Origin: Aquilaria yunnanensis
Lineage: Eukaryota > Streptophyta > Magnoliopsida > Malvales > Thymelaeaceae
Reading direction: 5' to 3'
Length of the DNA: 64,000 nucleotides
NCBI GenBank assembly: GCA_039654915.1
Contig: CM077596.1
Span: 47,552,501-47,616,500, forward strand
Shown here: positions 1,535-34,628 of the stretch, in pieces
How the letters are laid out: the number at the start of each line of letters is the position of its first letter
Position numbering within the stretch: position 1 is the first letter of the stretch
Program-made: the position numbers and the translations under genes
The notes under the pieces: model-generated
Told to the model about the DNA's origin: nothing
Seen by the model: only the letters and a program-made list of their open reading frames with translations
Database searches by the model: none

Positions 1535-4043
1535 TGTTGACACCCAATTTCGTCCGGCTTAAAAATAAAAAAATTAATTAATTATTTTAAAAATTAAAAC
1601 TTATTAAAAAAATTATTATTGAATTACTTAATTAATTGATTACTTAATTAAAAAATAATAATAGTAATAATGGCAATATTATTTTAGGGACATTCTTTTT
1701 TAATTTTTATGTTAAAGAAAAAAAAAGGAAAAAAAAGAAGAAAAAAATAATAATAATAAATTAAATCTAAATTAATTAAAATTCAAAATTATTAATTAAT
1801 TAATTAATTAAAAAAAAAAAGAATAAAAAAAACAAAAATAATAATAATAATAATAAATGGGGAGGGTGGCCGACAGAGGCTCCCCCTCCCCTTATCCCTT
1901 ATCTTCTCTCGCACTCTCTAATCTTATCTTCTTTCCCTCTCACGAAATCTTATCTCTCTTTCTCTGGTAACATGAGAGAACAGAGAGACAGCTTGGAGGC
2001 AACAACTCTCTCTCTCATCTCACGGATATTTTCTCTCACCCCTACCACAGCCTAGACTTCTCTCTCCCCCTCGCTCTCATTCACTCAGCTCGTCTCCCTC
2101 TCTGGCCTCTCTCCATTCTCTCTCTCTCTGCGCTCCCCTGAGCTCTCTCTCTCATCTTACGAGCTCAGCTCACTCTTCTTCTCCTTCACTCTCTCTTTCA
2201 CTCTCACCTTCGCCAGCCACACCTGCTGCCCAAACTCCACCCGCTCCGCCCTCTTCTACGGCCGATCCGCCAGCCGTCGCCTTCTCTGTCTCCCAGTAGA
2301 CGTCGTGTCGCCGCCAGCCTTCTAGCCTGGCGGTTTATCTTCCTCCGACAGCCCATCGACGCCGTCATCTCTTCGCACTCAGCCACGCCTCTCCTGCTGC
2401 GACCACTCCCTTGCTGCGCTCAGCCACCGCCCGTCGCACTCAGGCCAGCTCCTCTGCGTCGCCTCCCCTGCTGTGACCCCTCCCTTGTCGCGCCTCCTCC
2501 CATGCTCGCGACGCTGCCAAGCTGAGCACGCCGCCGTCGCACCCATCCAGCCCGACGCCCTTCCCTTGCTGGCTGGGCCTCCTCCGCTCGCCGTCGCACC
2601 GAAAAGCTCTCACGCCAGCCTGCTGCTCTCTTTTCACCGCCATCTCCCTACAGCTGCCGCGTCCCCCTCTCCGCTGCACCACCCAGCTTCCTTCACCGCC
2701 AGTCAGATCATTCTCGCCGCCGCCCCACGCTATCGACTCCAGCCGCTGCTCTCCTTCCGCCGTCTAGCCCCGTGTCGCGCCCAGGCCGCTACTCCGCCGC
2801 GCTTACGCCTCTTCCTCTTCCCGAATAGCCTAGCCCCCCTTTTGCTTCGCCATCCCCTCGCTGTAGTGTCACTGTCGTCTCGGCATCTGAAGGAAGAAGA
2901 AGAAGTAAGAAAAACAGAACGCGAGTTGCGTATTTCGTTTTTGACCAAGTCAAAGATTTCCTGTTTGGGCATAACCCTCGTTTAGCCCTTCTAATTTTCT
3001 TTTTCATTCATACAAGTCACTAATATTCTCCCTGTTTTGCAGATTCATCACTGACAGTATTGTTTTATGTTTTTTATTTCTTTTTTTGGTTGTTGGTTTA
3101 TTATTTCGAGAATCATGAATTATTCAGTGATCAATATTACATAAAATTGCATGTTTAGGTTAGGTTAGATTATTACTTATTTATTTTATTTTAACTTTAA
3201 TAGTTAGCATAAATTTAAAATTCATGTTTTACATAACGTATCTAAAAAGATCATATTTACGAGATTCAATTCTGAGCAAATTTTAATGAAAATTAAAGAA
3301 TGAATTTAGGACGTAATAAATCATAAAATTCATATCCAGGTGATTCGGTTAGAATCCATGGTTTGGATTCTATTGATAGCAAAAAAATATATATAATAAA
3401 TAAAATTAAAATTAAAATTAAATAATGAAACCCAGATCACAAACTCAACCAGTCAACCACATTTATCTTTTTGTACAACTATTATTTAGTCCTTGATACT
3501 TTTTATTTAGTTCATTTTAGTCACTCACCGTTGTTTCTATTGTTTGTAAATTAGTCACTGGAGTTAGAAGTTTATTTTCTGGCAGTTTAGCCACTGGCTA
3601 AGACTTTTTTTTTTTTTTTTTTTTTTTTATTTTTTTTTTATTATTATTTTTTTCTTAAAATCTTTGTAATTTTGATTGAATCTATACAATGCGTTTCAAA
3701 TATCAATTTTTGAGAATTCATTCTACGTGGGTTTAATAAAATTACAGGATTGAGGAAAAAGTGGCAGCATCTGTCTACTTTCCTGGTTTAATTTTTTGTG
3801 CTCTCCTCCTCGGATATTGTTAGTCTTATTAAAATCCGTATATGAGATTGTATATATAATCTTGATTTTGGATTGAAATCAGCATGATATTTGTTTGAAT
3901 TAAAAATGGTGCTTTTCTTGTTGAAGGCCACAGAGAACAAATCGAAGAAGATGACTTGAGATGGTATTTACCTAACTTTTGGATTAATGACAAAAATGGA
4001 TCCTCTAGATTACCTTTGTGATAAATTAGGCCCTAAATTTTTA

Positions 4044-4074
<31 letters not shown>

Positions 4075-4880
4075 TGGTCATTTATAGCCTAAATAATTAC
4101 TAAATCGTTTGTTTGCCATGAAAATTTTCTGCTTTGTGTATTTCGATCACTGATTTTACTTATTTTCTTTTATGTTTGTTCATTTCATTAAAGGCATTTA
4201 TCAGCTTAGGAATTAATATTAAGTATAATTATATAATTAGATTAGATAGACTTTTTAATAATTAATCTAAAAAATTAATTTGACATATTAAAAATAAAAA
4301 TCTCATTTTTGAAAATTTCGGTCTATGTGGGCCATTAATAATTAGTTAAATAATTAATAATAAGAATTAAATAATTACGATAAATCAATTTCCATATCCG
4401 GATGATCCGGCAGGATCTACGGTTTGGAAAATATCAAACTTTTTTTTTAAAAAAAATAAATAAATTAAATAAAAAGATAAAAATCCATATTTTTACAATA
4501 TGGATAAAATTGTTTAAAATTTCACCAAAATTCCGTGTCCAAATGACTCGGCAGAGTCCATGGTTCGGAATCAAAATCTTCCGTGTCCAAATGACTCGGC
4601 AGAGTCCATGGTTCGGAAGTATAAAATTTTACCCGAATTAATTACCAAAATCCACATTTTTGACTAATTCAGTTAAAATATCTAAATTAACTGAAAATTT
4701 TTAAAAGCAAAGTAAAACAAAATTAAAATCAACTAAGGTGCCAATTTTGGGCGCTATAACAATATTGTTTTAGCGTAACCGTACTCCCGATCCCCGAACT
4801 CTCGCAGACCAATTTTAAGGTGACCAATCGACCTAGGTAAACCGATTGGTGGCGACTCCAGAAAACCCGACGTTGCCACA
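1535..4880 (+). repeat. 5' LTR
   Basis: The LTR runs TGTTGACACC...GTTGCCACA, 3346 bp. It has an AT-rich beginning, a GC- and CT-rich block (about 1860-2900) that is probably the transcribed leader, and an AT-rich tail. It differs from the 3' LTR at A1568 (G16089), T1854 (A16374) and one extra A in the A-run at 1810-1820. Short ORFs in the CT-rich block, such as the proline/alanine-rich one at 2473-2985, occur identically in both LTRs and look like composition artefacts. A hairpin ACCAATCG / CGATTGGT lies 30-60 bp before the LTR end (about 4823-4850). Confidence 0.95.
3330..3370 (+). repeat. Dispersed ~40-bp motif inside the LTR (4 copies per LTR)
   Basis: A motif of about 40 bp with the pattern CATATCC-GGTGATTCGG-TAGAATCCATGGTTTGGA appears at 3330-3370, 4391-4432, 4531-4570 and 4579-4618, and at the matching places in the 3' LTR. 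The last two copies are identical over 40 bp and lie 48 bp apart. Its function is unknown. Confidence 0.75.
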
Positions 4881-4883
4881 GCT

Positions 4884-4901
4884 TGGCGACTCCACTGGGG
4901 A
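4884..4901 (+). promoter_or_regulatory. Primer binding site, tRNA-Arg type
   Basis: TGGCGACTCCACTGGGGA begins 3 bp after the 5' LTR. It is complementary to the 3' end of a plant tRNA-Arg including its CCA tail. This primes minus-strand DNA synthesis and fits the Tat/Ogre lineage. The tRNA assignment is from memory of tRNA 3' ends. Confidence 0.85.
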
Positions 4902-5888
4902 CCCTGGTTAGTGAGTCAAGCCTAAAAGTTGATTTATTTTGTTCTGTTTGTTTATTTTTATGTGGATTTATATGTTATATTTACTTATTCTAAACATGCA
5001 TAATGCATTCACAAAATGAAGCTCTATACCCGAGCTTCCTTAAATCAAACACAATTCTTTCTAAGCGGAATTGGTGTTGTTGTCCTTGTGAGGCCATGGT
5101 CTCCAAGCCTTCACCGGTTTCAAAGTAGTAAAGTAGTGTATTGCCTCCTGAGACGGTTAGTCTCTGCATGGGCCCACGAAAAGCTACGACTCGAATTAAT
5201 CCATTCCTTACATTAACCCTAGAGGGTAAGGAATCGGGCCGTCACTATGATTTAGTGACGGGATTCGAGAACTATCCCTTGCCTTTTTGATAAACCACCT
5301 TATGCATATAGAACTCCCCACTTAACCATAGAACTGACCATAGAATTTCTACCATTTTACCAACACCATAAGTATATCCTTGTTATGCTGTGTTGTTGCT
5401 CTACACTTTTATTTTCTTCGTGTCTTATATTTATGGTTTTAACTTGTTTATCCATAATACTTCATGAGTTGTTAATTGCTATTTAACTTGTTAATAACCT
5501 TATTTTTCTTTTGTTATACTTCCGTTCTGTGCAATTATTCTTCATGCATCAAAACCACGCATCAAATTATGCTAACTTTTTGGTCTTTTTAATAATAACA
5601 AGAAGTCTTGAAGTTTCACAATAGTTGATAATCAAGCTCACTCATTGCATACATCCATTACATCAATCACATGCATATAAAATCTGATAAAAATAATCTC
5701 ATTGCATGTATTCCATTACATCAATCACGTGCGTATAAATTTTGATAAAAAAAACATAATCTCATTATGTATTGCATGCATCCATTGCATCAATCATATA
5801 CATGTAAAATCTAGTAAAATGAATCTCACTTTAAAAAGGTAAAATTGGACCTCAACACCGATATCCAACTCGGCTCCAAACAAGACTA
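4902..5888 (+). other. Retrotransposon leader, no gene seen
   Basis: This is the untranslated leader between the primer site and the gag remnant. It contains two short stem-loops: TTCCTTAC / GTAAGGAA at about 5204-5234 and GTCACTA / TTAGTGAC at about 5242-5260. A phrase of the type CATTGCATGCATCCATTACATCAATCA is repeated three times, loosely, between 5640 and 5810. The hairpins sit where packaging or dimerisation signals are often found in retroelements; that role is inference. Confidence 0.5.
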
Positions 5889-6212
5889 ATGGCAGAACAA
5901 ACCGAAGGACGTCTCATAGATATAGAGTCCAAGATAAAAAATATGGCCGGAGCAATTCCCTCCTCATTACACCAAAAAATGAAATTCATTATTGACAGAA
6001 AGTTAATCACAGTTTTGGCTGAAGAAAGCATTCTGCTATCACCTATATCAACGGTAGCAAAGACCAAGTAGCCTCATCTTCCAAGTTGGAATGACCCAAA
6101 TGCCAAATATGATTATCAAAAAGGTTCAATTGGACATTCAACTGAAAATTCTGTCATATTGAAACTCAAGGTCCAACAGTTGGTCGAGTCCAAGTTGCTA
6201 GGCCCGATGTGA
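5889..6212 (+). pseudogene. Remnant of a Tat/Ogre-like gag
   Basis: This short frame of about 107 codons is the only trace of retrotransposon structural genes in the element. It opens with MAEQTEGRLIDIESKIKNM, has an in-frame TAG at 6069-6071, then continues with WNDPNAKYDYQ, GSIGHSTENSVILKLKVQQL and VESKLLG to a stop at 6210-6212. The segment around GHSTEN...LK.KVQ.L resembles the conserved tail of gag proteins of Tat/Ogre elements, where a CEYH...GH..E.C...K.KVQ.LID pattern is common. Two of the expected cysteines are not present. It is far too short to be a working capsid protein and may survive because the RNA around it is needed. Confidence 0.6.
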
Positions 6213-9200
6213 TTGGTAATTGAAAGTGAAGATTTTGAGCTGGAATTACATTGATTTTGGAAGGGCTCCAAGTCAGATCTGACCTAACAGTCCGCACACA
6301 CTTTTGAATGACAGGGAATCCTTTGAATAAACTTGTATCTTTGAAAGCTTGCAAAAGTAATTTAATAGTAAAAATCTCCTAGATTTAGTCCAGAATCTAG
6401 GGTGTAGTCTTTGTTAAATGGACACCTGCTATTCTTTTTCTAGTACAACAAAAAGATGTAATGCGTGCATTCTACTACTTTCCATTTTTACACTCTTTGC
6501 CATTATACTATCCATTATAGCCATCACACTTTACTTTTCGACAACCGGTAATTCTTTTTGTTCTCTAACAAAAAGATGTTGCGTGTGCATTCTACCACTT
6601 TTTAATCCCATTATTACTTCTACACATTCTACCAATTTTTACCAAAAATTCAATTATTACACCTACACATTCTACCACTTCTTACCAAAAATTCCGTTTT
6701 TACATCCATCTCTCACTCCTTTCCATTATACTATCCATTATTGCTATCATACTTTGCTTTGAAAACGATACTACTCGTGGGTGAAAATAAAAAAGTTAAG
6801 GGAAATTTGATAGTAATGATCTTGAAAGTGCTGCCAAATCTAGTAAGAAAGATTTCATATGTTGCACCTCAACCCTAAAAAAGAATTCACAGTGGTTATC
6901 AACATCCTTGCAAGAAGTTTGGGGTTAGTTTCCAAACAAGGTAGCTCTCATATTAAATGACTTCAGTGGCCTCCCAATTCTCATAAATGCTCAAAAAAAA
7001 AAAAAACAAAAAAAAAAGGTTCTCAGTTTTCTGCAACACAAACTCCGAAAAGAAAAAGTTCATCCCTTCCATCAAAAAGCCATTAAAGGGAAAATCCAAA
7101 AAAAAAAAAAAAGAGAGACTGAGAAGCAAATAAAGCCACTTGAGTCATCTCATTTCAAGAAGGCTATGATCTCGGTTCTCTGTAACAAAAACTCCGAAAA
7201 GGAAAAAGTTCATCCCTTCCATCAAAAAGCCAACAAGGGAAAATTCAAAACCAAAAAGAACTGAGAACAAACACGAGCAAGCAAGGCCACTTGAGTCATC
7301 TCACTTCAAGAGAGTTATCAAGTATGTCATCACCATAGCTCACAAAAAAAAAAAAGGGAAACAAAAAAAAAAAGGAAAAGGGGCTCAAACTAGAAAAAAA
7401 AAAAAAAGAAAAAAAAAGAAAAAAGTGAGCTATGGATTCTAGACTGAAAACCTGCAAAGGCGGTTTAGAACACAAAAGCAACCCTCAAACCAAGCATGCA
7501 TAAAGATCACAATAGTTGGGGGGCAACAGATGAGGTCTAACTTTCTGGAAAGAGTGGCAAGTTGAGGTCATCACTATTGAGTTTTTCACCATAATCAAAT
7601 TTGCTCACGAGTAGTATTAAAAGACCCTTCTTCCACACCACTTAAATTTAACTTTTCTCAAACCGAACATCCTCATTCAGTTAAAAGACTATCATTGTGA
7701 ATCATGTTTCTACCTTATTTAATACTGCTCACAAGTAGTATTAAAATACCATTCTTTCACACCACTCAAACTTAACTTTACTCAGACCTAATATTTACCT
7801 CTTAATATTATTCTCATTCAGCTAAAAGACTGCTACAAAAAAAAAATATTCAAACTTAATTTTCCTCACGCCTAACAGTTACCTCTCGATATCATCCTCA
7901 TTCAGCTAAAAGGCTATCCTTGCGAATCATGTTTCTACCTTATTGCCTTGAACAGTTTATGTCTTCGAGTTGGAAAGAGAAGAATGGCAGGATATTTTAA
8001 TTAAAAACAAAGACCGTAAATTACTTTGTCAAGCTTTGCAAATTGATGAAAGTTTTTCTTTAAGGCCAAACCATTATTCATTAATGTATGTAGACTTAAA
8101 AGTGAGGAGATAGCTTGAGTCTTTCTTTAATAAGATGTGGTTCTTGTAAGAGAAATTTACAATCAAGTGCCATCACAAAGGTCTAGAAATGCTCGACCTT
8201 CTGTTAAAGGCGAGGTGATACCTTTTATCAACATAAACATCATATTCAGGGGGGCAAAGTAGTCTCTACGAAGCATAAGAGGAGTACTGCCAACAAAGAA
8301 GTTCAATAGACAAGGGGGCAAGTCTTATGGATCAAAACATGAATTCAGGGAAGAGCAATCATTCAGATTATAACATGAGGATAAGTAAATGTCGGCACGG
8401 TCACAAGAAAAGGGGCAAAGCAGACATTGAAAGTAAAGCCTTTGATGGTATCAAATCCATGACAATGGATTAGTACCCGAAAGAGATATAAATTATGAGG
8501 CAGGCAAACTTTAAAGAAATTGAGGCCAAAATTCAAGAACAAGTCAAAGAAATGGGATTTTGAAAAGAGTTGGGCTTTTGAGACAATGGACAACAGCTGG
8601 AAAGCATAAAGAGATTCAATAATAGTCCGAGAAGGAAATCACAAAGAAGATCCAGTAAAGTAAAGCAAAGACATGAAGAGCTAGATTAAAAAAAAAAAAA
8701 AAAAAAAAAACATCAGTTACACATGCCTTGCATTCATGCATTTCACATCATGCATGCATGGCTTTTACATAACAGGGATCAAATGAAAAGCATGTCCGCA
8801 GCATGATTGCAGCAGTATAAGCTGAGATCTTAATGACATCAGCTCTTACTAATTGGACGCATAGCTAATACGCTGGACCCAGCCCCATCAGGAATCCAAG
8901 GATAAAGCATACAATATCGTCAAAAGCCTGGCAATTGAGGCTACACCTAAAAGAACAGAATTGATGCCAGCTTAGCAGCATCCAAGATGAGTGATAGCTA
9001 TCGTCAAAGATAAGGCAGACATCAAGAAATATTGTCGTTGAAAATTCGTCAAAAGCGGACAATGGATTCAATAATCAAGGACTGAATCGACGTCAGCTGG
9101 ATGGAATATCTATCACATCAAAATAAAGTAGGATTCACTTTTCCGGTTAAGCGGCGGATACGGTACTCCGTGACTCTCAAGTCGGTTCTCTCAGTTGCCC

Positions 9201-9249
9201 ATAATAACTGATACCTTCACCCCTTCTTTCTTTTACTTCCTCCTAGAAA
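6213..9249 (+). other. Non-coding spacer of the retrotransposon with short repeats
   Basis: I see no convincing gene. Visible structure: a 50-bp direct repeat at about 6430 and 6550 (AACAAAAAGATGT core); a repeated block at about 7015-7130 and 7165-7270 (AAAAAGTTCATCCCTTCCAT core); degenerate repeats from 7600 to 7950 (GCTCAC(A/G)AGTAGTATTAAAA and CTCATTCAGCTAAAAG); A-rich runs at 6990-7015, 7345-7425 and 8690-8710; and three G-tracts resembling polypurine tracts (about 7517, 8250 and 8311). A 114-codon ORF at 6418-6762 lies over the first repeat and is not credible as a gene. Confidence 0.6.
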
Positions 9250-9798
9250 ATGGATCCTACTTTTTCTGCCTTGCGAAAGTATTTCCCTTCTCTCCCAATG
9301 AACATCCTAAAAAAGATCTACCGAGTTCGCTGTGAACGATTAAGAGCTCTGATGCATAAAGGAATCCCTGAAGATGTGCGGTGGTTAATTGAAGCTAAGG
9401 TTCGTCTGGCAGGCGAAATCCCAGAGGCATTTGTGTCTCACATGCCTGGCGTAGGCAAAAGCTCTTATGCCAAAAAACGAAGAGCGAGGAGACTAGGCGT
9501 CTGTCATAAATGCGGACGCTGGACCTGTAATACTAAATGTCGTTCTTTAGGGATGATCTCTGATAATCGAGAAGATAAAATACGATTCATTAAGAATGGC
9601 CTGAGTAAGGACTCATTGGATGATATCCAATTGACTCTTGAGACGCATTCTTGTGGATCCGTGCAACGTGAACTTCTCGATTTATGGAGCATTTTTCATG
9701 AAGAACGAGAACGATACAGTCCCGGGAATCTGACGTTAAACGACCCTGTTTGCCGGTTTGTAAGAAAGCTGGATGGGAAGCAGATCCTCGACTCATAG
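9250..9798 (+). CDS. Virus-type cysteine-rich / nucleic-acid-binding protein homologue, copy 1
   Basis: This is an intact, intronless 182-residue protein. Its core resembles the cysteine-rich nucleic-acid-binding proteins of betaflexiviruses (carlavirus NABP, vitivirus p10). It has KGIPEDV at residues 37-43, SSYAKKRRARRLG at 71-83 (arginine-rich, a likely nuclear and RNA-binding signal), then a zinc-finger pattern C85-x2-C88-x4-C93-x3-C97, and DKIRFIKNGL about 12 residues later. In viruses such proteins bind nucleic acid and often suppress RNA silencing; that role here is inference. The viral proteins are usually 90-130 residues, so the tail after about 118 (ending NDPVCRFVRKLDG) is extra. 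The start is preceded by a CT-rich leader shared with copy 2, 289 bp downstream. Both lie in sense orientation inside the young retrotransposon. I have not been able to search databases. Confidence 0.82.
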   Translation: MDPTFSALRKYFPSLPMNILKKIYRVRCERLRALMHKGIPEDVRWLIEAKVRLAGEIPEAFVSHMPGVGKSSYAKKRRARRLGVCHKCGRWTCNTKCRSLGMISDNREDKIRFIKNGLSKDSLDDIQLTLETHSCGSVQRELLDLWSIFHEERERYSPGNLTLNDPVCRFVRKLDGKQILDS

Positions 9799-10087
9799 AA
9801 GCCGTTAATGCCGTTACTGGACGTAAAACCAGTGGAAGATGTGAGCCACAGTCACAATTACTGTACATACAGTTTGTTATATTTGGAAAAATTTGCATTT
9901 TCTTTTGACAGATGTACATGCTCCCCTAAGTGTAATCGACACGTTATCCCTTTTCATCACTATAAATGCATGTTCTTCCTTCTGATTAAACAACAGATAA
10001 GATACCCCGTGACTTCTAAAGTCGATTACTCCAGTTTCCTGTAATAACTGATTCATTTCCCTCTTCTCTCAAATTCTTCTCTCATCA

Positions 10088-10636
10088 ATGGATTCTACTC
10101 TTTCTGTACTGCGAAAATACTTTCCTTCCCTCCCACTAAAAGTCCTTAAAAAGATCTACCTTGCTAGATGTGAAAGAATCAGAGTTTTTACACGCAAAGG
10201 CATTCCCGATAATGTGCAGTGGATAATTGAAGCTAAGGTCCGTTTGGCGGGTGAAGTTCCAGATGCATTTATGCCCCGCATGCCCGGTTTAGGTAAAAGC
10301 CGTTATGCCAAAAGGCGAAGAGCAAAGAGGCTAGGCGTCTGTCACAATTGTGGATGGTGGATTTGCGGCAATAAATGTCGTGCTCCAGGAGTGATCACCA
10401 GAAATCGTAATGATAGAATAAAATTCATCAAGAATGGCTTGCGTAAGGAATCTCTGGAAGATATCCGAGAGGTTCTTGAAGCGCATTCTTGCGGAATAGT
10501 GCAATTTGAGGTTGTTGGATTATGGATAATTCTCCAAAAAGAACGAGAACGTTACAGTCTTGGGAATCTGACCCTAAACGACCCTGTTTGCCAGTTTGTG
10601 AAAAAGCTAGATGAGATGCAAATCACTGATTCATAG
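10088..10636 (+). CDS. Virus-type cysteine-rich / nucleic-acid-binding protein homologue, copy 2
   Basis: This tandem paralogue of the ORF at 9250-9798 also has 182 residues, and about 66 percent of positions are identical by my count. All landmarks align without gaps: LRKYFPSLP at 8-16, KGIPDNV at 37-43, the basic run YAKRRRAKRLG at 73-83, zinc-finger cysteines C85, C88, C93 and C97, and RIKFIKNGLRKESL. The finger loop differs (GWWI instead of GRWT), so the two copies may bind different targets. The upstream 90 bp and downstream 60 bp also align with copy 1 (CCGTGACT...AATAACTGAT; GCCGTTACTGGACG), so the duplicated unit is about 840 bp and includes its own leader. Two intact but clearly diverged copies in a young element suggest that both have been kept by selection. 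Confidence 0.82.
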   Translation: MDSTLSVLRKYFPSLPLKVLKKIYLARCERIRVFTRKGIPDNVQWIIEAKVRLAGEVPDAFMPRMPGLGKSRYAKRRRAKRLGVCHNCGWWICGNKCRAPGVITRNRNDRIKFIKNGLRKESLEDIREVLEAHSCGIVQFEVVGLWIILQKERERYSLGNLTLNDPVCQFVKKLDEMQITDS

Positions 10637-10686
10637 AAAGCATTGAAGCCGTTACTGGACGCAAAGCCAGTAGAAGACGGAACAAG

Positions 10687-11150
10687 GTCACGATTACTGT
10701 ACGTGCTAGCTGTCGCTTTTGAAATTTTCCTCCCCTTTTGATAATAATGTATCCACTCCTGACATGAACCAAAGTCACGATTACTGTACGTGCTAGCTGT
10801 CGCTTTTGAAATTTTCCTCCTCTTTTAGCAATAATGTATCCACTCTTGACATAAGCCATAGTCACGATACTGTACATGCTAGCTGACGCTTTTGAAATTT
10901 TCCTCCCATAATGTACCCACTCCTGACATGAGCTATAATTATGACTACTGTATATACCTGCCACTTTTGAAATTTTCCTTCTCATCCGACAATCATGTAC
11001 CTACTCCTGACATAAGCTACAGCCGCGACTACTGTACATGCTAGCAGCTATTTTGAAAATTTTCCTCCTCTTTTAACGATAGTGTACCCATACCTGACCA
11101 AAGTCATACTCGTGACTACTGTGAATAGCTGGCAATAATGTATCCATTCT
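10687..11150 (+). repeat. ~86-bp tandem repeats, about six copies
   Basis: Copies begin near 10687, 10774, 10861, 10937, 11022 and 11103, each with GTCACGATTACTGTACGTGC-like sequence followed by GCTTTTGAAATTTTCCTCC and ATGTATCCACTC. The first three are close matches and the later ones decay. They fill the space between copy 2 of the cysteine-rich gene and the LOG-like gene. Confidence 0.85.
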
Positions 11151-11224
11151 TGAAAATAAAATTATTGCCTTATCTCTTCATCTCTATAACTATATCCTCT
11201 TTTCTCACAAGGGTAAGGATAGGA

Positions 11225-11854
11225 ATGGAGAAAACCCCAACTCGTAAATCCCAAAGTATTTGTGTATTTTCTGGGGCTTTTCCTGGAAAAGATGAAGAGT
11301 ATTTAAAAGCAGCCAACCATTTGGGAAGAGTATTAGCTGAGCGAAAAATACATTTAGTTTATGGAGGAGGTAGTGTCGGATTAATGGGAGGTGTAGCATC
11401 AGCAGCATCTCTAGGAGGAAGTCAAGTTCTGGGTATTATCCCTGGACCTCTGAAATTTATTTCTGGGGGCACGATTGGAGAAGAATTAGTGGTTAAAAAT
11501 TTGCAAGAGCGTGTGTTACAAATGCTTTTAAATGCTGATGCTTTTATCGCTCTACCAGGTGGTTTTGGCACATTGGGAGAAGTCTTTCAAATTGCTTCCA
11601 TGGCCCAACTTAATTTGCATAAGAAACCCATTGGGCTTTTGAATGTTAACAATTTCTTTACAGGTCTGATAGCTTTTATGGATTATGCTATGCAGAAGAA
11701 TTTTATATCAAGAGTGGCACGGCGAATCATAATATCCGCAACAACTGCTGAAGAATTGCTAGATAAAATACAAGCTTTTGTTCCTGAACCAGATCCAGCA
11801 ATGATTCAGATAGACTGGACGCGACAGTCTTTCCCGAACAGTTCGATCCCATAA
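11225..11854 (+). CDS. LOG: LOG-like cytokinin riboside 5'-monophosphate phosphoribohydrolase
   Basis: LOG enzymes remove ribose 5'-phosphate from cytokinin nucleotides to release active cytokinin in the cytosol. This intact 209-residue ORF starts at MEKTPTRKSQ; an in-frame ATG at 11138 would add 29 unlike residues. It shows SICVFSGAFPGKDEEYL at 11-27, the Rossmann-like HLVYGGGSVGLMG at 43-55, QVLGIIPGPL, ADAFIALPGGFGTLGE with the family motif PGGxGTxxE at 111-119, and KPIGLLNV. The usual MHxRK motif reads LQERV here (93-97): Arg96 is kept but the His and Lys are replaced. Length matches plant LOGs (about 200-230). Plant LOG genes normally have several introns; this copy has none, which suggests capture from a spliced mRNA. 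It lies sense inside the retrotransposon. Family assignment is secure, activity is not. Confidence 0.88.
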   Translation: MEKTPTRKSQSICVFSGAFPGKDEEYLKAANHLGRVLAERKIHLVYGGGSVGLMGGVASAASLGGSQVLGIIPGPLKFISGGTIGEELVVKNLQERVLQMLLNADAFIALPGGFGTLGEVFQIASMAQLNLHKKPIGLLNVNNFFTGLIAFMDYAMQKNFISRVARRIIISATTAEELLDKIQAFVPEPDPAMIQIDWTRQSFPNSSIP

Positions 11855-12385
11855 TAGTCCTCTACTAACCCTGTTGAAATATTGTGGAAGAAGAAGTGAT
11901 CCGATCCGTTTTGCTTGTCCTTTAGTTTTATTATCAGCATTTTCTTTCGTGTTTTAGTTTTTCTTTCAGGGAATTTCTTTTTTTATCTTATAAGATAGTC
12001 TCGTCCATGCTGATATTAAAACCATAGGACAATGCCTTTAGGTTGGAATGGCTGAGTAAAGAGTAATTTTTATTGCTCTTGAGACGCATCCTATTAGGTC
12101 TACTAGGCATAACATTTTAGGATAGTTAAGCTTCAACCTTATTTGGATGACATATCTCTCAAGCGAATCTATATTTACTAAAGAAAATATTAGATAAACC
12201 TTGGATATTGATTCCAAACATCCGTTCCCTTTACATAATTTGTTAGCAATATTGTCATCATCAAGATTCACTCATTTTATCGAAGTCTAAAATTTCGCAC
12301 TCGCCTATTATGCAAATTCACACTTTCGAAGAAAATTATTCCAATTCTAATTGCTTTCATATAAATTTCGCTCGAAGTTCAAGGA
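11855..12385 (+). other. 3' flank of the LOG-like gene, no gene seen
   Basis: This is AT-rich sequence between the LOG-like stop codon and the repeat array. There are no ORFs of note, and I could not place a polyadenylation signal with confidence. Confidence 0.5.
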
Positions 12386-15300
12386 GATTCCCTTAACCTC
12401 AAATCATCAATTTTCCTTCAAAACGATAGGAGAGTTCCTATCGTCGAGGTTCTAAGGTAGGACCCTTAACCTCAAAACAAACAATTTTCCTTCAAACGAT
12501 AGGAGAGTTCCTATCGTCGAGGTTCTAAGGTAGGACCCTTAACCTCAAAATCAACAATTTTCCTTCAAACGATAGGAGAGTTCCTGTCGTCGAGGTTCTA
12601 AGGTAGGACCCTTAACCTCAAAATCATCAATTTTCCTTCAAACGATAGGAGAGTTCCTATCGTTGAGGTTCTAAGGTAGGACCCTTAACCTCAAAACAAT
12701 CAATTTTCCTTCAAACGATAGGAGAGTTCCTATCGTCGAGGTTCTAAGGTAGGGCCCTTAACCTCAAAATCATCAATTTTCCTTCAAACGATAGGAGAGT
12801 TCCTATCGTCGAGGTTCTAAGGTAGGACCCTTAACCTCAAAATCATCAATTTTCCTTCAAACGATAGGAGAGTTCCTATCGTCGAGGTTCTAAGGTAGGA
12901 CCCTTAACCTCAAAACAATCAATTTTCCTTCAAACGATAGGAGAGTTCCTATCGTCGAGGTTCTAAGGTAGGACCCTTAACCTCATTCAAACAATTTTCC
13001 TTCAAACGATAGGAGAGTTCCTGTCGTCGAGGTTCTAAGGTAGGACCCTTAACCTCAAAATCATCAATTTTCCTTCAAACGATAGGAGAGTTCCTATCGT
13101 CGAGGTTCTAAGGTAGGACCCTTAACCTCAAAATCATCAATTTTCCTTCAAACGATAGGAGAGTTCCTATCGTCGAGGTTCTAAGGTAGGACCCTTAACC
13201 TCAAAATCATCAATTTTCCTTCAAACGATAGGAGAGTTCCTATCGTCGAGGTTCTAAGGTAGGACCCTTAACCTCAAAACAATCAATTTTCCTTCAAACG
13301 ATAGGAGAGTTCCTATCGTCGAGGTTCTAAGGTAGGGCCCTTAACCTCAAAATCATCAATTTTCCTTCAAACGATAGGAGAGTTCCTATTGTCGAGGTTC
13401 TAAGGTAGGACCCTTAACCTCAAAATCATCAATTTTCCTTCAAACGATAGGAGAGTTCCTATCGTCGAGGTTCTAAGATAGGGCCCTTAACCTCAAAATC
13501 ATCAATTTTCCTTCAAACGATAGGAGAGTTCCTATCGTCGAGGTTCTAAGGTAGGACCCTTAACCTCATTCAAACAATTTTCCTTCAAACGATAGGAGAG
13601 TTCCTGTCGTCGAGGTTCTAAGGTAGGACCCTTAACCTCAAAATCATCAATTTTCCTTCAAACGATAGGAGAGTTCCTATCGTCGAGGTTCTAAGGTAGG
13701 ACCCTTAACCTCAAAATCATCAATTTTCCTTCAAACGATAGGAGAGTTCCTATCGTCGAGGTTCTAAGGTAGGACCCTTAACCTCAAAATCATCAATTTT
13801 CCTTTAAACGATAGGAGAGTTCCTATCGTCGAGGTTCTAAGGTAGGACCCTTAACCTCAAAATCATCAATTTTCCTCCAAACGATAGGAGAGTTCCTATC
13901 ATCGAGGTTCTAAGGTAGGACCCTTAACCTCAAAATCATCAATTTTCCTTCAAACGATAGGAGAGTTCCTATCGTCGAGGTTCTAAGGTAGGACCCTTAA
14001 CCTCAAAACAATCAATTTTCCTTCAAACGATAGGAGAGTTCCTATCGTCGAGGTTCTAAGGTAGGACCCTTAACCTCATTCAAACAATTTTCCTTCAAAC
14101 GATAGGAGAGTTCCTGTCGTCGAGGTTCTAAGGTAGGACCCTTAACCTCAAAATCATCAATTTTCCTTCAAACGATAGGAGAGTTCCTATCGTCGAGGTT
14201 CTAAGGTAGGACCCTTAACCTCAAAATCATCAATTTTCCTTCAAACGATAGGAGAGTTCCTATCGTCGAGGTTCTAAGGTAGGACCCTTAACCTCAAAAT
14301 CATCAATTTTCCTTCAAACGATAGGAGAGTTCCTATCGTCGAGGTTCTAAGGTAGGACCCTTAACCTCAAAACAATCAATTTTCCTTCAAACGATAGGAG
14401 AGTTCCTATCGTCGAGGTTCTAAGGTAGGGCCCTTAACCTCAAAATCATCAATTTTCCTTCAAACGATAGGAGAGTTCCTATTGTCGAGGTTCTAAGGTA
14501 GGACCCTTAACCTCAAAATCATCAATTTTCCTTCAAACGATAGGAGAGTTCCTATCGTCGAGGTTCTAAGATAGGGCCCTTAACCTCAAAATCATCAATT
14601 TTCCTTCAAACGATAGGAGAGTTCCTATCGTCGAGGTTCTAAGGTAGGACCCTTAACCTCATTCAAACAATTTTCCTTCAAACGATAGGAGAGTTCCTGT
14701 CGTCGAGGTTCTAAGGTAGGACCCTTAACCTCAAAATCATCAATTTTCCTTCAAACGATAGGAGAGTTCCTATCGTCGAGGTTCTAAGGTAGGACCCTTA
14801 ACCTCAAAATCATCAATTTTCCTTCAAACGAGAGGAGAGTTCCTATCGTCGAGGTTCTAAGGTAGGACCCTTAACCTCAAAATCATCAATTTTCCTTCAA
14901 ACGATAGGAGAGTTCCTATCGTCGAGGTTCTAAGGTAGGACCCTTAACCTCAAAATCATCAATTTTCCTTTAAACGATAGGAGAGTTCCTATCGTCGAGG
15001 TTCTAAGGTAGGACCCTTAACCTCAAAATCATCAATTTTCCTCCAAACGATAGGAGAGTTCCTATCATCGAGGTTCTAAGGTAGGACCCTTAACCTCAAA
15101 ATCATCAATTTTTCTTCAAACGATAGGAGAGTTCCTATCATCGAGGTTCTAAGGTAGGACCCTTAACCTTAATCATCAATTTTTCTTCAAACGATAAGAG
15201 AATTCTTGTCGCAGAGGTTCTAAGGTAGGGCCCTTAACCTCAAACTTTCAACGATAGAAGAGTTCCTATCGTCGAGGTTCTAAGGAGAGTTCCTTAAACC

Positions 15301-15955
15301 TCAAACAATCAATCATCAATTTTTCTTAAACGATAAGAGAGTTCTTATCGCAGAGGTTCTAAGGTAGGGCCCTTAACCTCAAACTTTCAACGATAGGAGA
15401 GTTCCTATCGTCGAGGTTCTAAGGAGAGTTCCTTAACCTCAAACAATCAATCATTCAGTCCATCTTACAACGATAGAACCTTTCCTATCGTTAGAGGTTC
15501 TAAGGACCTTTCCTTAAACCTCAAACAAACAATCAATCATTCAGTCCATCTTACAACAATAGAACCTTTCCTATCGTTAGAGGTTCTAAGGACCTTTCCT
15601 TAAACCTCAAACAAACAATCAATCATTCAGTCCATCTTACAACGATAGAACCTTTCCTATCGTTAGAGGTTCTAAGGACCTTTCCTTAACCTCAAACAAA
15701 CAATCAATCATTCAGTCCATCTTACAACGATAGAACCTTTCCTATCGTTAGAGGTTCTAAGGACCTTTCCTTAACCTCAAACAAACAATCAATCATTCAG
15801 TCCATCTTACAACGATAGAACCTTTCCTATCGTTAGAGGCTCTAAGGACCTTTCCTTAAACCTCAAACAAACAATCAATCATTCAGTCCATCTTACAACG
15901 ATAGAACTTTTCCTATCGTTAGAGGTTCTAAGGACCTTTTCTTTAACCTCTGAGT
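12386..15955 (+). repeat. Hairpin-bearing tandem repeat array of the retrotransposon
   Basis: About 38 copies of a 73-bp unit (12390-15170) are followed by about ten diverged units of 85-105 bp (15170-15955). Each unit carries ACGATAGGA-GAGT-TCCTATCGT, a 9-bp stem with 4-nt loop, and GAGGTTCTAAGG...CCTTAACCTC, a second stem. The variant with CATTCAAACAA and CTGTCGTCG recurs at about 12985, 13567, 14077 and 14660, giving a higher-order period near 582 bp. Two rare variants (TATTGTCG at about 13388 and 14482; CTAAGATAGGG at about 13471 and 14567) repeat about 1,095 bp apart, so a 15-unit block was duplicated. Variable tandem repeats just upstream of the 3' LTR are known for Ogre/Tat elements. 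Confidence 0.95.
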
Positions 15956-16055
15956 TTAGGTAACGAGAAAATTCTCAATGCCTAGCTAAGCCGGACGAAA
16001 TTTGGTAACGACTTTGCATACATCATGTCCCATGAAGCATGCAAAGGGGGGCAGC
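15956..16055 (+). promoter_or_regulatory. Region before the 3' LTR with polypurine tract
   Basis: AAAGGGGGG at 16043-16051, followed by CAGC and the TG of the LTR, is the primer for plus-strand synthesis. The preceding 90 bp include CATGTCCCATGAAGCATGC. No gene. Confidence 0.8.
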
Positions 16056-18563
16056 TGTTGACACCCAATTTCGTCCGGCTTAAAAATAGAAAAATTAATT
16101 AATTATTTTAAAAATTAAAACTTATTAAAAAAATTATTATTGAATTACTTAATTAATTGATTACTTAATTAAAAAATAATAATAGTAATAATGGCAATAT
16201 TATTTTAGGGACATTCTTTTTTAATTTTTATGTTAAAGAAAAAAAAAGGAAAAAAAAGAAGAAAAAAATAATAATAATAAATTAAATCTAAATTAATTAA
16301 AATTCAAAATTATTAATTAATTAATTAATTAAAAAAAAAAGAATAAAAAAAACAAAAATAATAATAATAATAAAAAATGGGGAGGGTGGCCGACAGAGGC
16401 TCCCCCTCCCCTTATCCCTTATCTTCTCTCGCACTCTCTAATCTTATCTTCTTTCCCTCTCACGAAATCTTATCTCTCTTTCTCTGGTAACATGAGAGAA
16501 CAGAGAGACAGCTTGGAGGCAACAACTCTCTCTCTCATCTCACGGATATTTTCTCTCACCCCTACCACAGCCTAGACTTCTCTCTCCCCCTCGCTCTCAT
16601 TCACTCAGCTCGTCTCCCTCTCTGGCCTCTCTCCATTCTCTCTCTCTCTGCGCTCCCCTGAGCTCTCTCTCTCATCTTACGAGCTCAGCTCACTCTTCTT
16701 CTCCTTCACTCTCTCTTTCACTCTCACCTTCGCCAGCCACACCTGCTGCCCAAACTCCACCCGCTCCGCCCTCTTCTACGGCCGATCCGCCAGCCGTCGC
16801 CTTCTCTGTCTCCCAGTAGACGTCGTGTCGCCGCCAGCCTTCTAGCCTGGCGGTTTATCTTCCTCCGACAGCCCATCGACGCCGTCATCTCTTCGCACTC
16901 AGCCACGCCTCTCCTGCTGCGACCACTCCCTTGCTGCGCTCAGCCACCGCCCGTCGCACTCAGGCCAGCTCCTCTGCGTCGCCTCCCCTGCTGTGACCCC
17001 TCCCTTGTCGCGCCTCCTCCCATGCTCGCGACGCTGCCAAGCTGAGCACGCCGCCGTCGCACCCATCCAGCCCGACGCCCTTCCCTTGCTGGCTGGGCCT
17101 CCTCCGCTCGCCGTCGCACCGAAAAGCTCTCACGCCAGCCTGCTGCTCTCTTTTCACCGCCATCTCCCTACAGCTGCCGCGTCCCCCTCTCCGCTGCACC
17201 ACCCAGCTTCCTTCACCGCCAGTCAGATCATTCTCGCCGCCGCCCCACGCTATCGACTCCAGCCGCTGCTCTCCTTCCGCCGTCTAGCCCCGTGTCGCGC
17301 CCAGGCCGCTACTCCGCCGCGCTTACGCCTCTTCCTCTTCCCGAATAGCCTAGCCCCCCTTTTGCTTCGCCATCCCCTCGCTGTAGTGTCACTGTCGTCT
17401 CGGCATCTGAAGGAAGAAGAAGAAGTAAGAAAAACAGAACGCGAGTTGCGTATTTCGTTTTTGACCAAGTCAAAGATTTCCTGTTTGGGCATAACCCTCG
17501 TTTAGCCCTTCTAATTTTCTTTTTCATTCATACAAGTCACTAATATTCTCCCTGTTTTGCAGATTCATCACTGACAGTATTGTTTTATGTTTTTTATTTC
17601 TTTTTTTGGTTGTTGGTTTATTATTTCGAGAATCATGAATTATTCAGTGATCAATATTACATAAAATTGCATGTTTAGGTTAGGTTAGATTATTACTTAT
17701 TTATTTTATTTTAACTTTAATAGTTAGCATAAATTTAAAATTCATGTTTTACATAACGTATCTAAAAAGATCATATTTACGAGATTCAATTCTGAGCAAA
17801 TTTTAATGAAAATTAAAGAATGAATTTAGGACGTAATAAATCATAAAATTCATATCCAGGTGATTCGGTTAGAATCCATGGTTTGGATTCTATTGATAGC
17901 AAAAAAATATATATAATAAATAAAATTAAAATTAAAATTAAATAATGAAACCCAGATCACAAACTCAACCAGTCAACCACATTTATCTTTTTGTACAACT
18001 ATTATTTAGTCCTTGATACTTTTTATTTAGTTCATTTTAGTCACTCACCGTTGTTTCTATTGTTTGTAAATTAGTCACTGGAGTTAGAAGTTTATTTTCT
18101 GGCAGTTTAGCCACTGGCTAAGACTTTTTTTTTTTTTTTTTTTTTTTTATTTTTTTTTTATTATTATTTTTTTCTTAAAATCTTTGTAATTTTGATTGAA
18201 TCTATACAATGCGTTTCAAATATCAATTTTTGAGAATTCATTCTACGTGGGTTTAATAAAATTACAGGATTGAGGAAAAAGTGGCAGCATCTGTCTACTT
18301 TCCTGGTTTAATTTTTTGTGCTCTCCTCCTCGGATATTGTTAGTCTTATTAAAATCCGTATATGAGATTGTATATATAATCTTGATTTTGGATTGAAATC
18401 AGCATGATATTTGTTTGAATTAAAAATGGTGCTTTTCTTGTTGAAGGCCACAGAGAACAAATCGAAGAAGATGACTTGAGATGGTATTTACCTAACTTTT
18501 GGATTAATGACAAAAATGGATCCTCTAGATTACCTTTGTGATAAATTAGGCCCTAAATTTTTA

Positions 18564-18594
<31 letters not shown>

Positions 18595-19400
18595 TGGTCA
18601 TTTATAGCCTAAATAATTACTAAATCGTTTGTTTGCCATGAAAATTTTCTGCTTTGTGTATTTCGATCACTGATTTTACTTATTTTCTTTTATGTTTGTT
18701 CATTTCATTAAAGGCATTTATCAGCTTAGGAATTAATATTAAGTATAATTATATAATTAGATTAGATAGACTTTTTAATAATTAATCTAAAAAATTAATT
18801 TGACATATTAAAAATAAAAATCTCATTTTTGAAAATTTCGGTCTATGTGGGCCATTAATAATTAGTTAAATAATTAATAATAAGAATTAAATAATTACGA
18901 TAAATCAATTTCCATATCCGGATGATCCGGCAGGATCTACGGTTTGGAAAATATCAAACTTTTTTTTTAAAAAAAATAAATAAATTAAATAAAAAGATAA
19001 AAATCCATATTTTTACAATATGGATAAAATTGTTTAAAATTTCACCAAAATTCCGTGTCCAAATGACTCGGCAGAGTCCATGGTTCGGAATCAAAATCTT
19101 CCGTGTCCAAATGACTCGGCAGAGTCCATGGTTCGGAAGTATAAAATTTTACCCGAATTAATTACCAAAATCCACATTTTTGACTAATTCAGTTAAAATA
19201 TCTAAATTAACTGAAAATTTTTAAAAGCAAAGTAAAACAAAATTAAAATCAACTAAGGTGCCAATTTTGGGCGCTATAACAATATTGTTTTAGCGTAACC
19301 GTACTCCCGATCCCCGAACTCTCGCAGACCAATTTTAAGGTGACCAATCGACCTAGGTAAACCGATTGGTGGCGACTCCAGAAAACCCGACGTTGCCACA
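16056..19400 (+). repeat. 3' LTR
   Basis: This 3345-bp copy is nearly identical to 1535-4880. It starts TGTTGACACC after the purine tract and ends GTTGCCACA, followed by the target duplication GCCGT at 19401-19405. Confidence 0.95.
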
Positions 19401-21218
19401 GCCGTCACCCTGAGGAATTAAATGTAGCTCTGATCGACTGCAGAGAATCTCAAGGTCTTTACGAGCCTTCACGTTGTCCTTAGTTTTATTGGTCACATCC
19501 ATCACTGTATTCCATATATTGTCAAACACATTATTCTCTATATGCATAACATCCAAATTATGGCGGATCAAGTTAGTCTTCCAATACGGTAGCTCCTAGA
19601 AAATACTTCGTTTTGTCCAATTATGGGTTCTGCCATAACCTGGTATGGTTACAACCTGTCCATTGCGAACTACAGAACACAAATGTGCGATACGTTCAAA
19701 TATTGCTGCTGGTGGTAAACGCTCAGGAGGCAACGATTTCTCAACTTTTCCTCTCTTAAAGGAGACTCTGTTCCTTCTGTATGGGTGATCCAACTCTAGA
19801 AATTGTCTATGACAATCGAAGAATGACGTTTTCCTTCCATGCTGAAGTTGGAAAGCTTTACTATACTCCATGCAAATAGGGCACGATAACCTCCCATGAG
19901 TCATCCATCCGGACAACATCCCATATGCCGGGAAGTCATTTATGGTCCACAAAACCGAAGCACGGAGCTGAAAATTTTGTTTCAGTGAAACATCCCATGT
20001 TTCGACCCCATCCTCTCATAGCTGCTTCAATTCATGAATAAGTGGTTGTAAATAGACATCAATATTCTGACGTGGACTCCGAGGGCCAGGTATCAATGCA
20101 GTCAAAAACATATATGGCTTCTTCATACACATCCACGGAGGCAAATTATAGGGAGTTACAATGACAGGCCAACATGAGTATTGTTTACCTGAGTACCCGA
20201 AAGGCGTAAACCCATCAGAACAAACTCCAAGGCGAACATTTCGGGCCTCCGCCGCAAACCACGGGTACGTGGAATCAAAATATTTCCATGCTTCTGCATC
20301 TGAAGGATGTTTTAAAACATTTGGGTCGGATCGATGCTCACTATGCCACCGCATGTGCTCTGCAGTTGAGAGTGAAGCATATAGTCGCTGAAGGCGTGGA
20401 GTGAGCGGTAAATAGTGCATAGTCTTCCTTGCTCTATCCTTACCTCGCCCATTTGATCTCGGCTTAAACCGAGATTCACCACAAAACTTGCATTCTGAAG
20501 CATCTTCATCAGTATTCCAAAACAACATACAGTCGTTTACACAAGCATCAATTTTAAGATGGGCAAGACCTAGTTGTGAAACTAATTTCTTCGTCTTATA
20601 CCAATTCGATGGCATCTTGCTGTCACTTGGCTGCGTCTCTTTCATCAACGCTGCAATACCATCATAACACCCTCTTGGTATATGATATTCTGCTTTTAGG
20701 TTTAACAACCGAACTGCAGCAGAAAGTTCAGAATGCTTCTCACATCCATCCCAAAGAGGTGTACTAACGGAGTCCAGTAACTCAGAAAATTTTCTAAACC
20801 CTTCATTAGGTTGTTGATCCTGTTCAGTGGAATTCTGATGCATACTCGGACCCGCTGCATCAAATATCATTTGAGCATATGGGTTTATATTTGAACTGTA
20901 CTCAGACTGCTCATACACATCATAATTATGAAACGGCTGCTGCGGAGGCTCTGTAAAGGCCTCCCCATGAGCTGTCCAGTTGGTGTAATGAGGCATGAAA
21001 CCCACTTTGTATAGATGCACTCGCACGTCATCACAATACTTAAACCTCAAATTTTTACACCTCTTACACGGGCAACGTATTTTGTCTCCATCCATGTGAG
21101 CTGGGTTACTACAAGCGAATGTAACAAACTGCTCAATCCCTGTCTCCCACTCCTCTGTGTACCCAACTCGACCCGGTAAATACCGACTACTATACATCCA
21201 ACTACGTTCCATGGAGTC
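19401..21218 (-). pseudogene. CACTA (En/Spm) transposase, 5' half, two premature stops
   Basis: Translation starts at the ATG at 21212 (MERSWMYSSRYLPGR). The first about 85 residues are a transposase-associated domain with a Cys-rich core (CPCKRCKN, GFMPHYTNWTAHGE). A TNP2 transposase domain follows (NDCMLFWNTDED, CKFCGESRF, HYLPLTPRLQRLYAS, RLGVCSDGFTPFG). The frame is cut by TGA at 20016-20018 and TAG at 19596-19598; both replace a Trp codon in the family pattern. The same frame resumes after each stop (WTINDFPAYGMLSGW, CPICMEYSKAF, GYGRTHNWTKRSIF, RHNLDVMHIENNVFDN). The 3' half lies at 1-1534, beyond the retrotransposon. An acceptor AG at 21220-21219 just before the ATG, paired with a donor at 23275, suggests a long intron in the 5' UTR. 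Confidence 0.92.
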
Positions 21219-23275: not shown

Positions 23276-23460
23276 CTTCAGATCTCCCCAAATGACACCA
23301 GATCCAAGTAATACTGAGCTAGACGAAGCTGTTTCATGGTAAAATCGGAACCAAAACGTGAATGTGTGTGTTCTGTGATGAAGAGAGAAGTTTGGAGAGA
23401 GAGAGCGAATTTCAGGCTCGCTGGAGAAGACGCCTCGCGCTGGGGGGGGCCAGATTTAAA
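23276..23460 (-). promoter_or_regulatory. Probable untranslated leader exon and promoter side of the CACTA transposase
   Basis: The composition changes here to a mixed, GC-richer segment with a CT-rich stretch on the minus strand, lying between the subterminal palindromes and the putative long intron. This is the usual place for the transcription start of a CACTA transposase. No clear TATA box could be fixed. Confidence 0.35.
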
Positions 23461-23467
23461 AACTTTT

Positions 23468-24690: not shown

Positions 24691-24715
24691 GGAAAAAGAG
24701 GTTTTTTTAGTAGTA

Positions 24716-28752: not shown

Positions 28753-28769
28753 GTTATCATTCCAATATT
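28753..28769. repeat. LINE target site duplication, left copy
   Basis: GTTATCATTCCAATATT, repeated exactly at 34612-34628. Seventeen bp with an adjacent A-tail is typical of target-primed reverse transcription. Confidence 0.95.
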
Positions 28770-34561: not shown

Positions 34562-34628
34562 GACGGTAAGAATTGTGCAAAGACGGGATTTGGCGATTTG
34601 TTAGCAGGCACGTTATCATTCCAATATT

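What the first reader, a model, noticed from the sequence alone, without database searches (positions are those of the whole stretch)
9250..11854. A plant LTR retrotransposon carrying two virus-type cysteine-rich proteins plus a LOG cytokinin enzyme
Three intact sense ORFs lie inside one young LTR retrotransposon that has no recognisable pol. Two resemble the cysteine-rich nucleic-acid-binding proteins of betaflexiviruses, which commonly act as silencing suppressors. The third is a LOG-like enzyme that would release active cytokinin. Seen: intact frames, motifs and nesting. Known: the viral protein class and the LOG reaction. Inferred: the element uses virus-like accessory genes to weaken host silencing or to favour dividing cells.
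Basis: partly seen in the sequence, partly recalled or inferred. Interest (0 to 1): 0.96.

Follow-up and report, generated by a model that had tools for sequence, protein, structure and literature searches.

The report
Jumping gene carrying virus-type silencing suppressors
A very recently inserted plant retrotransposon without reverse transcriptase carries two intact copies of a protein related to plant RNA-virus nucleic-acid-binding proteins, which would likely blunt small-RNA silencing, and a gene of the cytokinin-activating LOG family that lacks residues a tested bacterial relative needs and so probably does not make hormone in the usual way.

Summary
The three ORFs are real and lie in one LTR retrotransposon (1535-19400) with a perfect 5-bp target duplication; its LTRs differ at 2 of 3345 aligned positions. 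Six-frame Pfam scans of 4881-12391 find only two virus-type nucleic-acid-binding proteins (NABPs) and LOG, no gag-pol. Both NABPs pass Pfam's gathering scores for Viral_NABP and Carla_C4; Foldseek ranks betaflexivirus suppressors first, with weak scores. The NABP family is large (143 sequences in hand). In an independent contig it follows a Ty3/gypsy integrase, leader and 3' flank conserved, so it is an accessory gene of an integrase-bearing lineage (Athila-like by recalled motifs). NG86 dN/dS of 0.17-0.28 indicates purifying selection; one ML estimate disagrees. LOG in LTR elements was reported before; my searches found no report of the NABP. The LOG reading weakens: catalytic Arg, Thr and Glu remain, but a Lys essential in a tested bacterial LOG is gone (one loss on a 42-row tree), and the window copy also lost the neighbouring acidic residue. 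Best mechanism: a non-autonomous element moved in trans, its NABPs likely countering siRNA silencing, its LOG likely a changed nucleotide enzyme. No function was tested.

The parts
1535..19400 (+). Whole non-autonomous LTR retrotransposon, 17,866 bp
   Evidence: paired LTRs, TSD, PPT; PBS-like TGG sequence
1530..1534 (.). Target-site duplication GCCGT, left copy
19401..19405 (.). Target-site duplication GCCGT, right copy
1535..4880 (+). 5' LTR, TG...CA, 3346 bp
4884..4901 (+). Putative primer-binding site (TGGCGACTCCACTGGGGA); the tRNA was not identified
   Evidence: sequence 3 bases behind the LTR end
9139..9884 (+). NABP cassette 1 (leader, ORF, 3' flank) that matches L001 at 73.5% over 773 aligned positions; the match ends at these borders
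9147..9215 (+). Conserved non-coding leader of cassette 1
   Evidence: 44 of 72 alignment columns invariant among three copies, two of them paralogues in this element
9250..9798 (+). NABP1, 182 aa, Viral_NABP/Carla_C4, basic stretch and C-x2-C-x4-C-x3-C
9980..10702 (+). NABP cassette 2, 75% identical to cassette 1
10088..10636 (+). NABP2, 182 aa, the more diverged paralogue
10683..11098 (+). 87-bp tandem repeats beginning in the 3' flank of NABP2
11138..11854 (+). LOG-family ORF (probable start 11225); R125, T145, E148 kept, V126 and G147 changed
12390..15383 (+). 73-bp tandem array, about 39 copies, followed by 86-bp repeats to 15950
16043..16051 (+). Polypurine tract AAAGGGGGG
16056..19400 (+). 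3' LTR, 3345 bp

Best explanation
A very recent, gag-pol-less LTR retrotransposon carries a duplicated betaflexivirus-type nucleic-acid-binding protein and a LOG-family protein, and it likely moves with enzymes supplied in trans by an integrase-bearing Ty3/gypsy relative while its NABPs are predicted to weaken siRNA-based silencing of the element. Shown: element borders and recent insertion; no pol found; intact ORFs; NABP homology above curated cut-offs; purifying selection on NABP; the same NABP cassette behind an integrase ORF on another contig. Inferred: trans-mobilisation; NABP action on siRNA silencing and host transcription, as reported for the carlavirus protein p12; expression from a spliced or internal RNA. 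The LOG is inferred to keep a phosphoribose-nucleotide site with changed base recognition rather than ordinary cytokinin activation.
For: Element. No pol. NABP family: Pfam (of 81 members, the 2 window proteins included, 70 hit PF05515 and 68 PF01623 at E<=0.001). Foldseek of the L001 NABP model against BFVD: 15 of 23 matches with E<=10 come from viruses that I know as betaflexiviruses, 13 of them named suppressor, nucleic-acid- or RNA-binding; the 15 include ranks 1-4 and 6-10; the NABP1 model put two such proteins first and second of 30. Cassette behind integrase: L001; Rhamnella gene model P0055 joins an integrase end (70% identical to L001's over 111 aa) to a NABP. Selection: NG86 dN/dS 0.28, 0.17, 0.22; upper 97.5% bootstrap bounds 0.42, 0.26, 0.38. 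Each gene has its own closest relative: NABP1-P0206 95%, NABP2-P0001 80%, LOG-P0080 90%; NABP2+P0001 form a starred pair, and these two with NABP1 and P0206 a starred set of four. LOG with NABP elsewhere: Rhamnella P0060 has a NABP (52% identity over 98% of the query, precomputed PF01623) and a LOG domain; two contig lengths over 4 kb recur in both hit lists. Carlavirus p12: transcriptional activator and silencing suppressor; 24-nt small RNAs led in the control but not with p12 (PMC7588395, abstract and part 1 of section 2). LOG residues: with passages of PMC5379747 and PMC4979012.
Against: No function was tested. Foldseek matches are individually weak (best E 0.11 and 0.16, low TM-scores) and use amino acids as well as shape; the NABP models are middling (pLDDT about 70). 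The window copy is so young that its intact frames alone prove little. One dN/dS method (ML, NABP1 against L001) gave about 0.9, YN00 failed for two of three pairs, and two NG86 dS values exceed 1, near saturation. No second copy from the same genome could be searched (genome search did not complete). No direct sign of trans-mobilisation. Contig sharing of NABP and LOG rests on equal contig lengths, not on sight of the contigs; one search reported no NABP domain for P0060 at E<=0.1. The siRNA size shift seen with p12 was also seen with the unrelated suppressor HcPro.
Confidence: 0.5

Rival explanations
1. The NABPs are not mainly suppressors: they act as RNA chaperones or nucleocapsid-like proteins that bind the element's own RNA and steer it into particles made by a partner element that supplies gag.
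For: No gag found; the conserved basic stretch and Cys motif suit RNA binding; conserved leader and 3' flank could be binding sites.
Against: L001 has the NABP as a separate ORF behind integrase, where it would be an extra to the partner's own gag (not seen on that 3.3-kb contig); the one structure count on three sequences does not stand out from its shuffles (164 of 500 as high).
Confidence: 0.2
2. One reading: NABP plus LOG push cells towards division: LOG frees cytokinin, and NABP acts as a transcription factor like carlavirus p12, favouring cells that transmit new copies.
For: p12 acts in the nucleus as a transcriptional activator that reprograms the host (PMC7588395); LOG family membership; catalytic Arg, Thr and Glu kept.
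Against: Window LOG has V126 and G147; the equivalents K156A and D177A caused complete and almost complete loss in CgLOGII (PMC5379747 passages). The Lys is missing in 105 of the 112 LOG relatives where the site could be read.
Confidence: 0.15
3. The ORFs are passengers: captured sequences that look intact only because this copy inserted tens of thousands of years ago.
For: LTR divergence of 2 in 3345 corresponds to about 23,000-43,000 years at assumed rates; one ML dN/dS value near 0.9.
Against: NABP1 and NABP2 differ at 134 of 546 bases with no stop or indel (random substitution keeps the frame open in 0.4% of 3000 runs) and the other dN/dS estimates are well under 1; relatives keep the frame over about 50% divergence.
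Confidence: 0.08

Closest known systems
Ty3/gypsy elements with extra ORFs, including LOG-type (YgdH) domains reported in LTR elements of Citrus and Populus (PMC9289625, section 12, citing Steinbauerova et al. 2011; Athila-like per recalled abstract)
   Same: LOG-family ORF in an LTR element; an extra sense ORF behind pol in the relative L001
   Different: No pol in this copy; a duplicated virus-type NABP accompanies LOG; NABP is not named in the sections and passages I read
Betaflexivirus nucleic-acid-binding or cysteine-rich proteins (Pfam PF05515, PF01623), such as chrysanthemum virus B p12
   Same: Viral_NABP match over 86-89 residues, basic stretch followed by a Cys motif, best-ranked viral fold matches
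   Different: 182 aa instead of 77-144 in the viral matches (some are fragments); compact C-x2-C-x4-C-x3-C finger; encoded in a nuclear retrotransposon
Orchid Ty3/gypsy elements with an AlkB-type RNA demethylase (PMC9289625, sections 12 and 17)
   Same: LTR element that keeps an accessory gene whose domain also occurs in Betaflexiviridae (section 17)
   Different: Other protein; those elements keep gag-pol; the enzyme was assayed there
Large retrotransposon derivatives (LARDs; label recalled)
   Same: Long LTRs and a long internal region without gag-pol
   Different: LARDs are described as non-coding (recalled); this one has three coding ORFs

Membership tests
LTR retrotransposon | Paired LTRs TG...CA, TSD, PBS, PPT | tested here: met
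   the primer tRNA was not identified
LTR retrotransposon, autonomous | gag-pol | tested here: not met
   six-frame Pfam scans of 4881-12391, tblastn with L001 integrase
Athila lineage | RT/RH/INT phylogeny within Athila | not testable with these tools
   no pol in the window; L001 integrase carries rve and H2C2 domains, the Athila label is recalled
Athila lineage | ATHILA ORF-1 domain (PF03078; in 16% of Athila elements per a passage of PMC6317226, so not strictly defining) | tested here: not met
   not found in the six-frame scans
Viral_NABP / Carla_C4 (betaflexivirus NABP) | Profile score above the curated gathering score | tested here: met
   70 and 68 of 81 members at E<=0.001
Viral_NABP / Carla_C4 (betaflexivirus NABP) | Fold like viral members | tested here: inconclusive
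   best-ranked but E 0.11 or more
RNA silencing suppressor | Suppresses silencing in an assay | not tested
   bench work needed
LOG cytokinin-activating enzyme | PGGxGTxxE motif with catalytic Arg and Glu | tested here: met
   R125, PGGFGTLGE, E148
LOG cytokinin-activating enzyme | Lys after the catalytic Arg and acidic residue before the catalytic Glu (needed in CgLOGII) | tested here: not met
   V126 and G147; PMC5379747 passages

The most novel reading that the evidence does not exclude
A silencing-suppressor gene family shared with RNA viruses has been a standing accessory gene of a Ty3/gypsy lineage across eudicots, conserved together with its own leader and 3' flank; non-autonomous derivatives such as this one dropped gag-pol, doubled the suppressor and added a captured LOG whose base pocket was rebuilt, so that it acts on nucleotides other than cytokinin precursors, perhaps nucleotide immune signals. 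The parasite then spreads by anti-silencing and nucleotide tampering rather than by its own replication enzymes.
Probability: 0.25. Interest if true: 0.93.

Novelty: new variant of a known kind. Interest (0 to 1): 0.82.

Why it matters
How plant retrotransposons escape siRNA silencing is an open question. A gene family shared between RNA-virus suppressors and retrotransposons would give a direct, testable answer, and shows gene traffic between RNA viruses and nuclear elements in one direction or the other. The LOG clade offers a natural experiment: a residue essential in a tested relative is gone while the rest of the site is kept, which points to a changed nucleotide activity. Some database entries name such proteins as ordinary LOG genes or hypothetical proteins, so hormone-gene counts in plants may include them.

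Tried and rejected
Host LOG capture with normal activity: no longer the default after the residue comparison. A minus-strand ORF (10623-10985) with a DUF1836 hit below its cut-off lies in tandem repeats: ignored. RNA hairpins around NABP: one hairpin with one paired change, not above shuffles; Rfam gathering scan of the window found nothing. PDB sequence search (E up to 1) gave no NABP match, and the PDB fold search gave only E 1.4 or worse. Two IMG/VR scans gave no relative. Splice-acceptor-like sites before the ORFs were listed and are used only for an inferred step. An earlier, quick LOG tree of 63 rows left out the Xanthoceras models by length; the 43-row tree replaced it.

Searches were aimed at NABP or betaflexivirus sequences in retrotransposons or plant genomes; none listed a paper whose title or abstract start reports a NABP in an LTR element, and the passages I saw of PMC3136472 report a betaflexivirus replicase-like insert in cucumber, not a NABP. 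The library lacks most subscription journals, and supplementary files could not be read. Steinbauerova et al. 2011 is known to me by recall and by its citation in PMC9289625; Lukhovitskaya et al. 2013 and 2014 only by titles in a reference list. PMC9289625 was seen as outline, passages and sections 12 and 17; PMC7588395 as passages and part 1 of section 2; PMC7264820, PMC6317226, PMC11963269, PMC3136472, PMC4979012, PMC8234997 and PMC5379747 as passages only.
Full report
The element. The stretch 1535-19400 is one LTR retrotransposon: LTRs of 3346 and 3345 bp, TG...CA ends, a perfect GCCGT duplication on both sides, a TGG-starting primer-site-like sequence three bases inside the 5' LTR and a polypurine tract before the 3' LTR. 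Over 3345 aligned LTR positions there are 2 mismatches, plus 1 gap, about 23,000-43,000 years at the two rates I assumed. BLAST over slightly wider ends counted 4 mismatches and 1 gap. The flanks hit DUF4218 and Transposase_21 (tnp2) domains, which I know from CACTA transposons, and joining them across the insertion gives a 321-residue open stretch on the minus strand, so the element sits inside such a transposase gene.

What it encodes. In 4881-12390 three sense ATG-ORFs of 182 residues or more exist, against 2 of 1000 shuffles with any. Six-frame Pfam scans of 4881-12391, stops as X, find NABP and LOG domains; the one other hit is a sub-threshold bacterial domain at E 0.86. The rest of the interior, 12392-16055, is mostly tandem arrays of 73 and 86 bp, was not scanned with Pfam, and has no ORF of 80 aa or more. 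The related integrase ORF finds nothing in the window better than E 0.91.

The NABPs. Both match Viral_NABP and Carla_C4 above gathering scores. A database search gave 79 relatives from 139 candidates; a profile search gave 615 at E<=0.01 among 7996 scored, of which 120 were listed. Of the 143 distinct relatives in hand, 69 are exactly 182 aa and 116 hold C-x2-C-x4-C-x3-C; fragments are counted in the 143. Plant sources named among the listed hits are Xanthoceras, Acer, Rhamnella and Populus x canadensis; no virus species is named among them, though one source calls its protein 'Viral nucleic acid binding' (P0200). Hmmscan of 81 members (79 relatives and both window proteins): 70 hit PF05515 and 68 PF01623 at E<=0.001. 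AlphaFold models of NABP1 and of the L001 NABP (best of five each) are all-helical with pLDDT near 70. Foldseek with the window NABP1 model lists two betaflexivirus proteins first (E 0.11, 0.19; 30 matches). None passes 0.001; the consistent ranking is the evidence. PDB searches found no relative.

The cassette in an integrase-bearing element. One scan of bacterial and archaeal genome contigs found one locus, L001, a 3330-base contig binned as Candidatus Nomurabacteria. I take it for plant DNA because it holds an integrase ORF of retrotransposon type (rve, Integrase_H2C2) followed about 200 bases later by a NABP 70% identical to NABP1 (I used the ATG at 1799, the listed ORF starts 4 codons earlier). 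Nucleotide similarity to cassette 1 covers 9139-9884 (73.5% over 773 aligned positions) and includes about 110 bases before the ATG and 86 behind the stop. The Rhamnella model P0055 independently joins an integrase end to a NABP, though gene models can join over a distance. So the gene occupies the slot behind pol in an integrase-bearing lineage; I call it Athila-like from recalled integrase motifs, no call tested that.

Selection and age of the set. NG86 dN/dS: NABP1-NABP2 0.206/0.740; NABP1-L001 0.194/1.161; NABP2-L001 0.302/1.347, bootstrap 97.5% bounds 0.417, 0.256, 0.379 (4 of 300 resamples failed for the last pair). ML agrees for two pairs and not for NABP1-L001 (0.193/0.212); YN00 gave 0.223/0.622 for NABP1-NABP2 and failed for the other two. 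NABP2 pairs with P0001 (100 starred), and these two with NABP1 and P0206 make a starred set of four (98, 97 chosen rows), so the two copies probably parted before those relatives did. The LOG has its own 90% relative P0080. LOG selection could not be measured: no second DNA copy was at hand.

The LOG. It aligns to Arabidopsis LOG3 and LOG8 (3e-51, 6e-47). Passages of PMC4979012 name Arg99 and Glu122 as proposed catalytic and Met96, Lys100, Glu121 as adenine-binding in CgLOG; passages of PMC5379747 say that R155A, K156A, T175A and E178A abolished and D177A almost abolished CgLOGII activity on AMP. The window LOG has R125, T145, E148 but V126 and G147. Among 120 listed relatives the site could be read in 112: Arg in 108, Lys next in 7, Met/Leu/Ile after Arg in 101; the final Glu was found in 110 of 120. 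On a tree of 43 chosen rows, 39 element-type rows form one clade (98/95) and the Lys state of 42 rows needs one change; six Xanthoceras rows (cut from five models) and P0151 keep Lys. Only three canonical plant LOGs and one bacterial one stood outside, so host genes inside the clade are not excluded; some of its members are named LOGL10 in Populus. That these relatives sit in elements is supported for few: Rhamnella P0060 has both parts in one model (one search reported only the LOG domains for it), two contig lengths above 4 kb recur in both hit lists (12 LOG and 17 NABP lengths, of which the script held 16), and LOG-type domains were reported in LTR elements of Citrus and Populus (PMC9289625 section 12). 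Effects of Val, Met, Leu or Ile in a plant-type LOG are untested.

Mechanism. The carlavirus p12 protein is described as a nuclear transcriptional activator and cytoplasmic suppressor; 24-nt small RNAs led in the control, 21-nt ones with p12 and also with the suppressor HcPro (PMC7588395, abstract and part 1 of section 2). 24-nt siRNAs guide DNA methylation of plant transposons (general knowledge). I therefore commit to: transcription from the LTR, NABP made from a spliced or internal RNA, NABP weakening siRNA silencing, and movement by a partner's enzymes. All these steps are inferred.

Distribution. Named hosts of NABP or LOG relatives include Malvales, Sapindales, Rosales and Lamiales; for Reevesia and Paulownia only the LOG was seen. 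Direction of transfer between virus and element is open.

Noticed in passing
window 12068-12093: A 27-nt stretch 92.6% identical to part of the L001 NABP coding sequence (E 3e-4) lies behind LOG: perhaps the remnant of a third NABP copy.
   Followed up: partly
window 6418-6762: 114-aa ORF inside the element, rich in Cys and with hydrophobic stretches, no Pfam hit.
   Followed up: partly
window 29964-34366: Non-LTR (LINE-like) element on the minus strand: RVT_1, endonuclease and DUF4283 ORFs.
   Followed up: no
window 25680-27555 and 39867-41758: Inverted copies of about 1.9 kb, 87.9% identical.
   Followed up: no
window 44791-45955: Two pieces of a MATE transporter gene on the minus strand, probably host exons.
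   Followed up: no
L001 1-3330: Plant-type retrotransposon contig binned into a Candidatus Nomurabacteria genome: likely contamination of a public bacterial assembly.
   Followed up: partly
P0083, P0084 (Xanthoceras): Gene models with two LOG stretches around a segment that looks like a Ty3/gypsy polyprotein piece (recalled resemblance); above Pfam's cut-offs only LOG domains are seen.
   Followed up: partly
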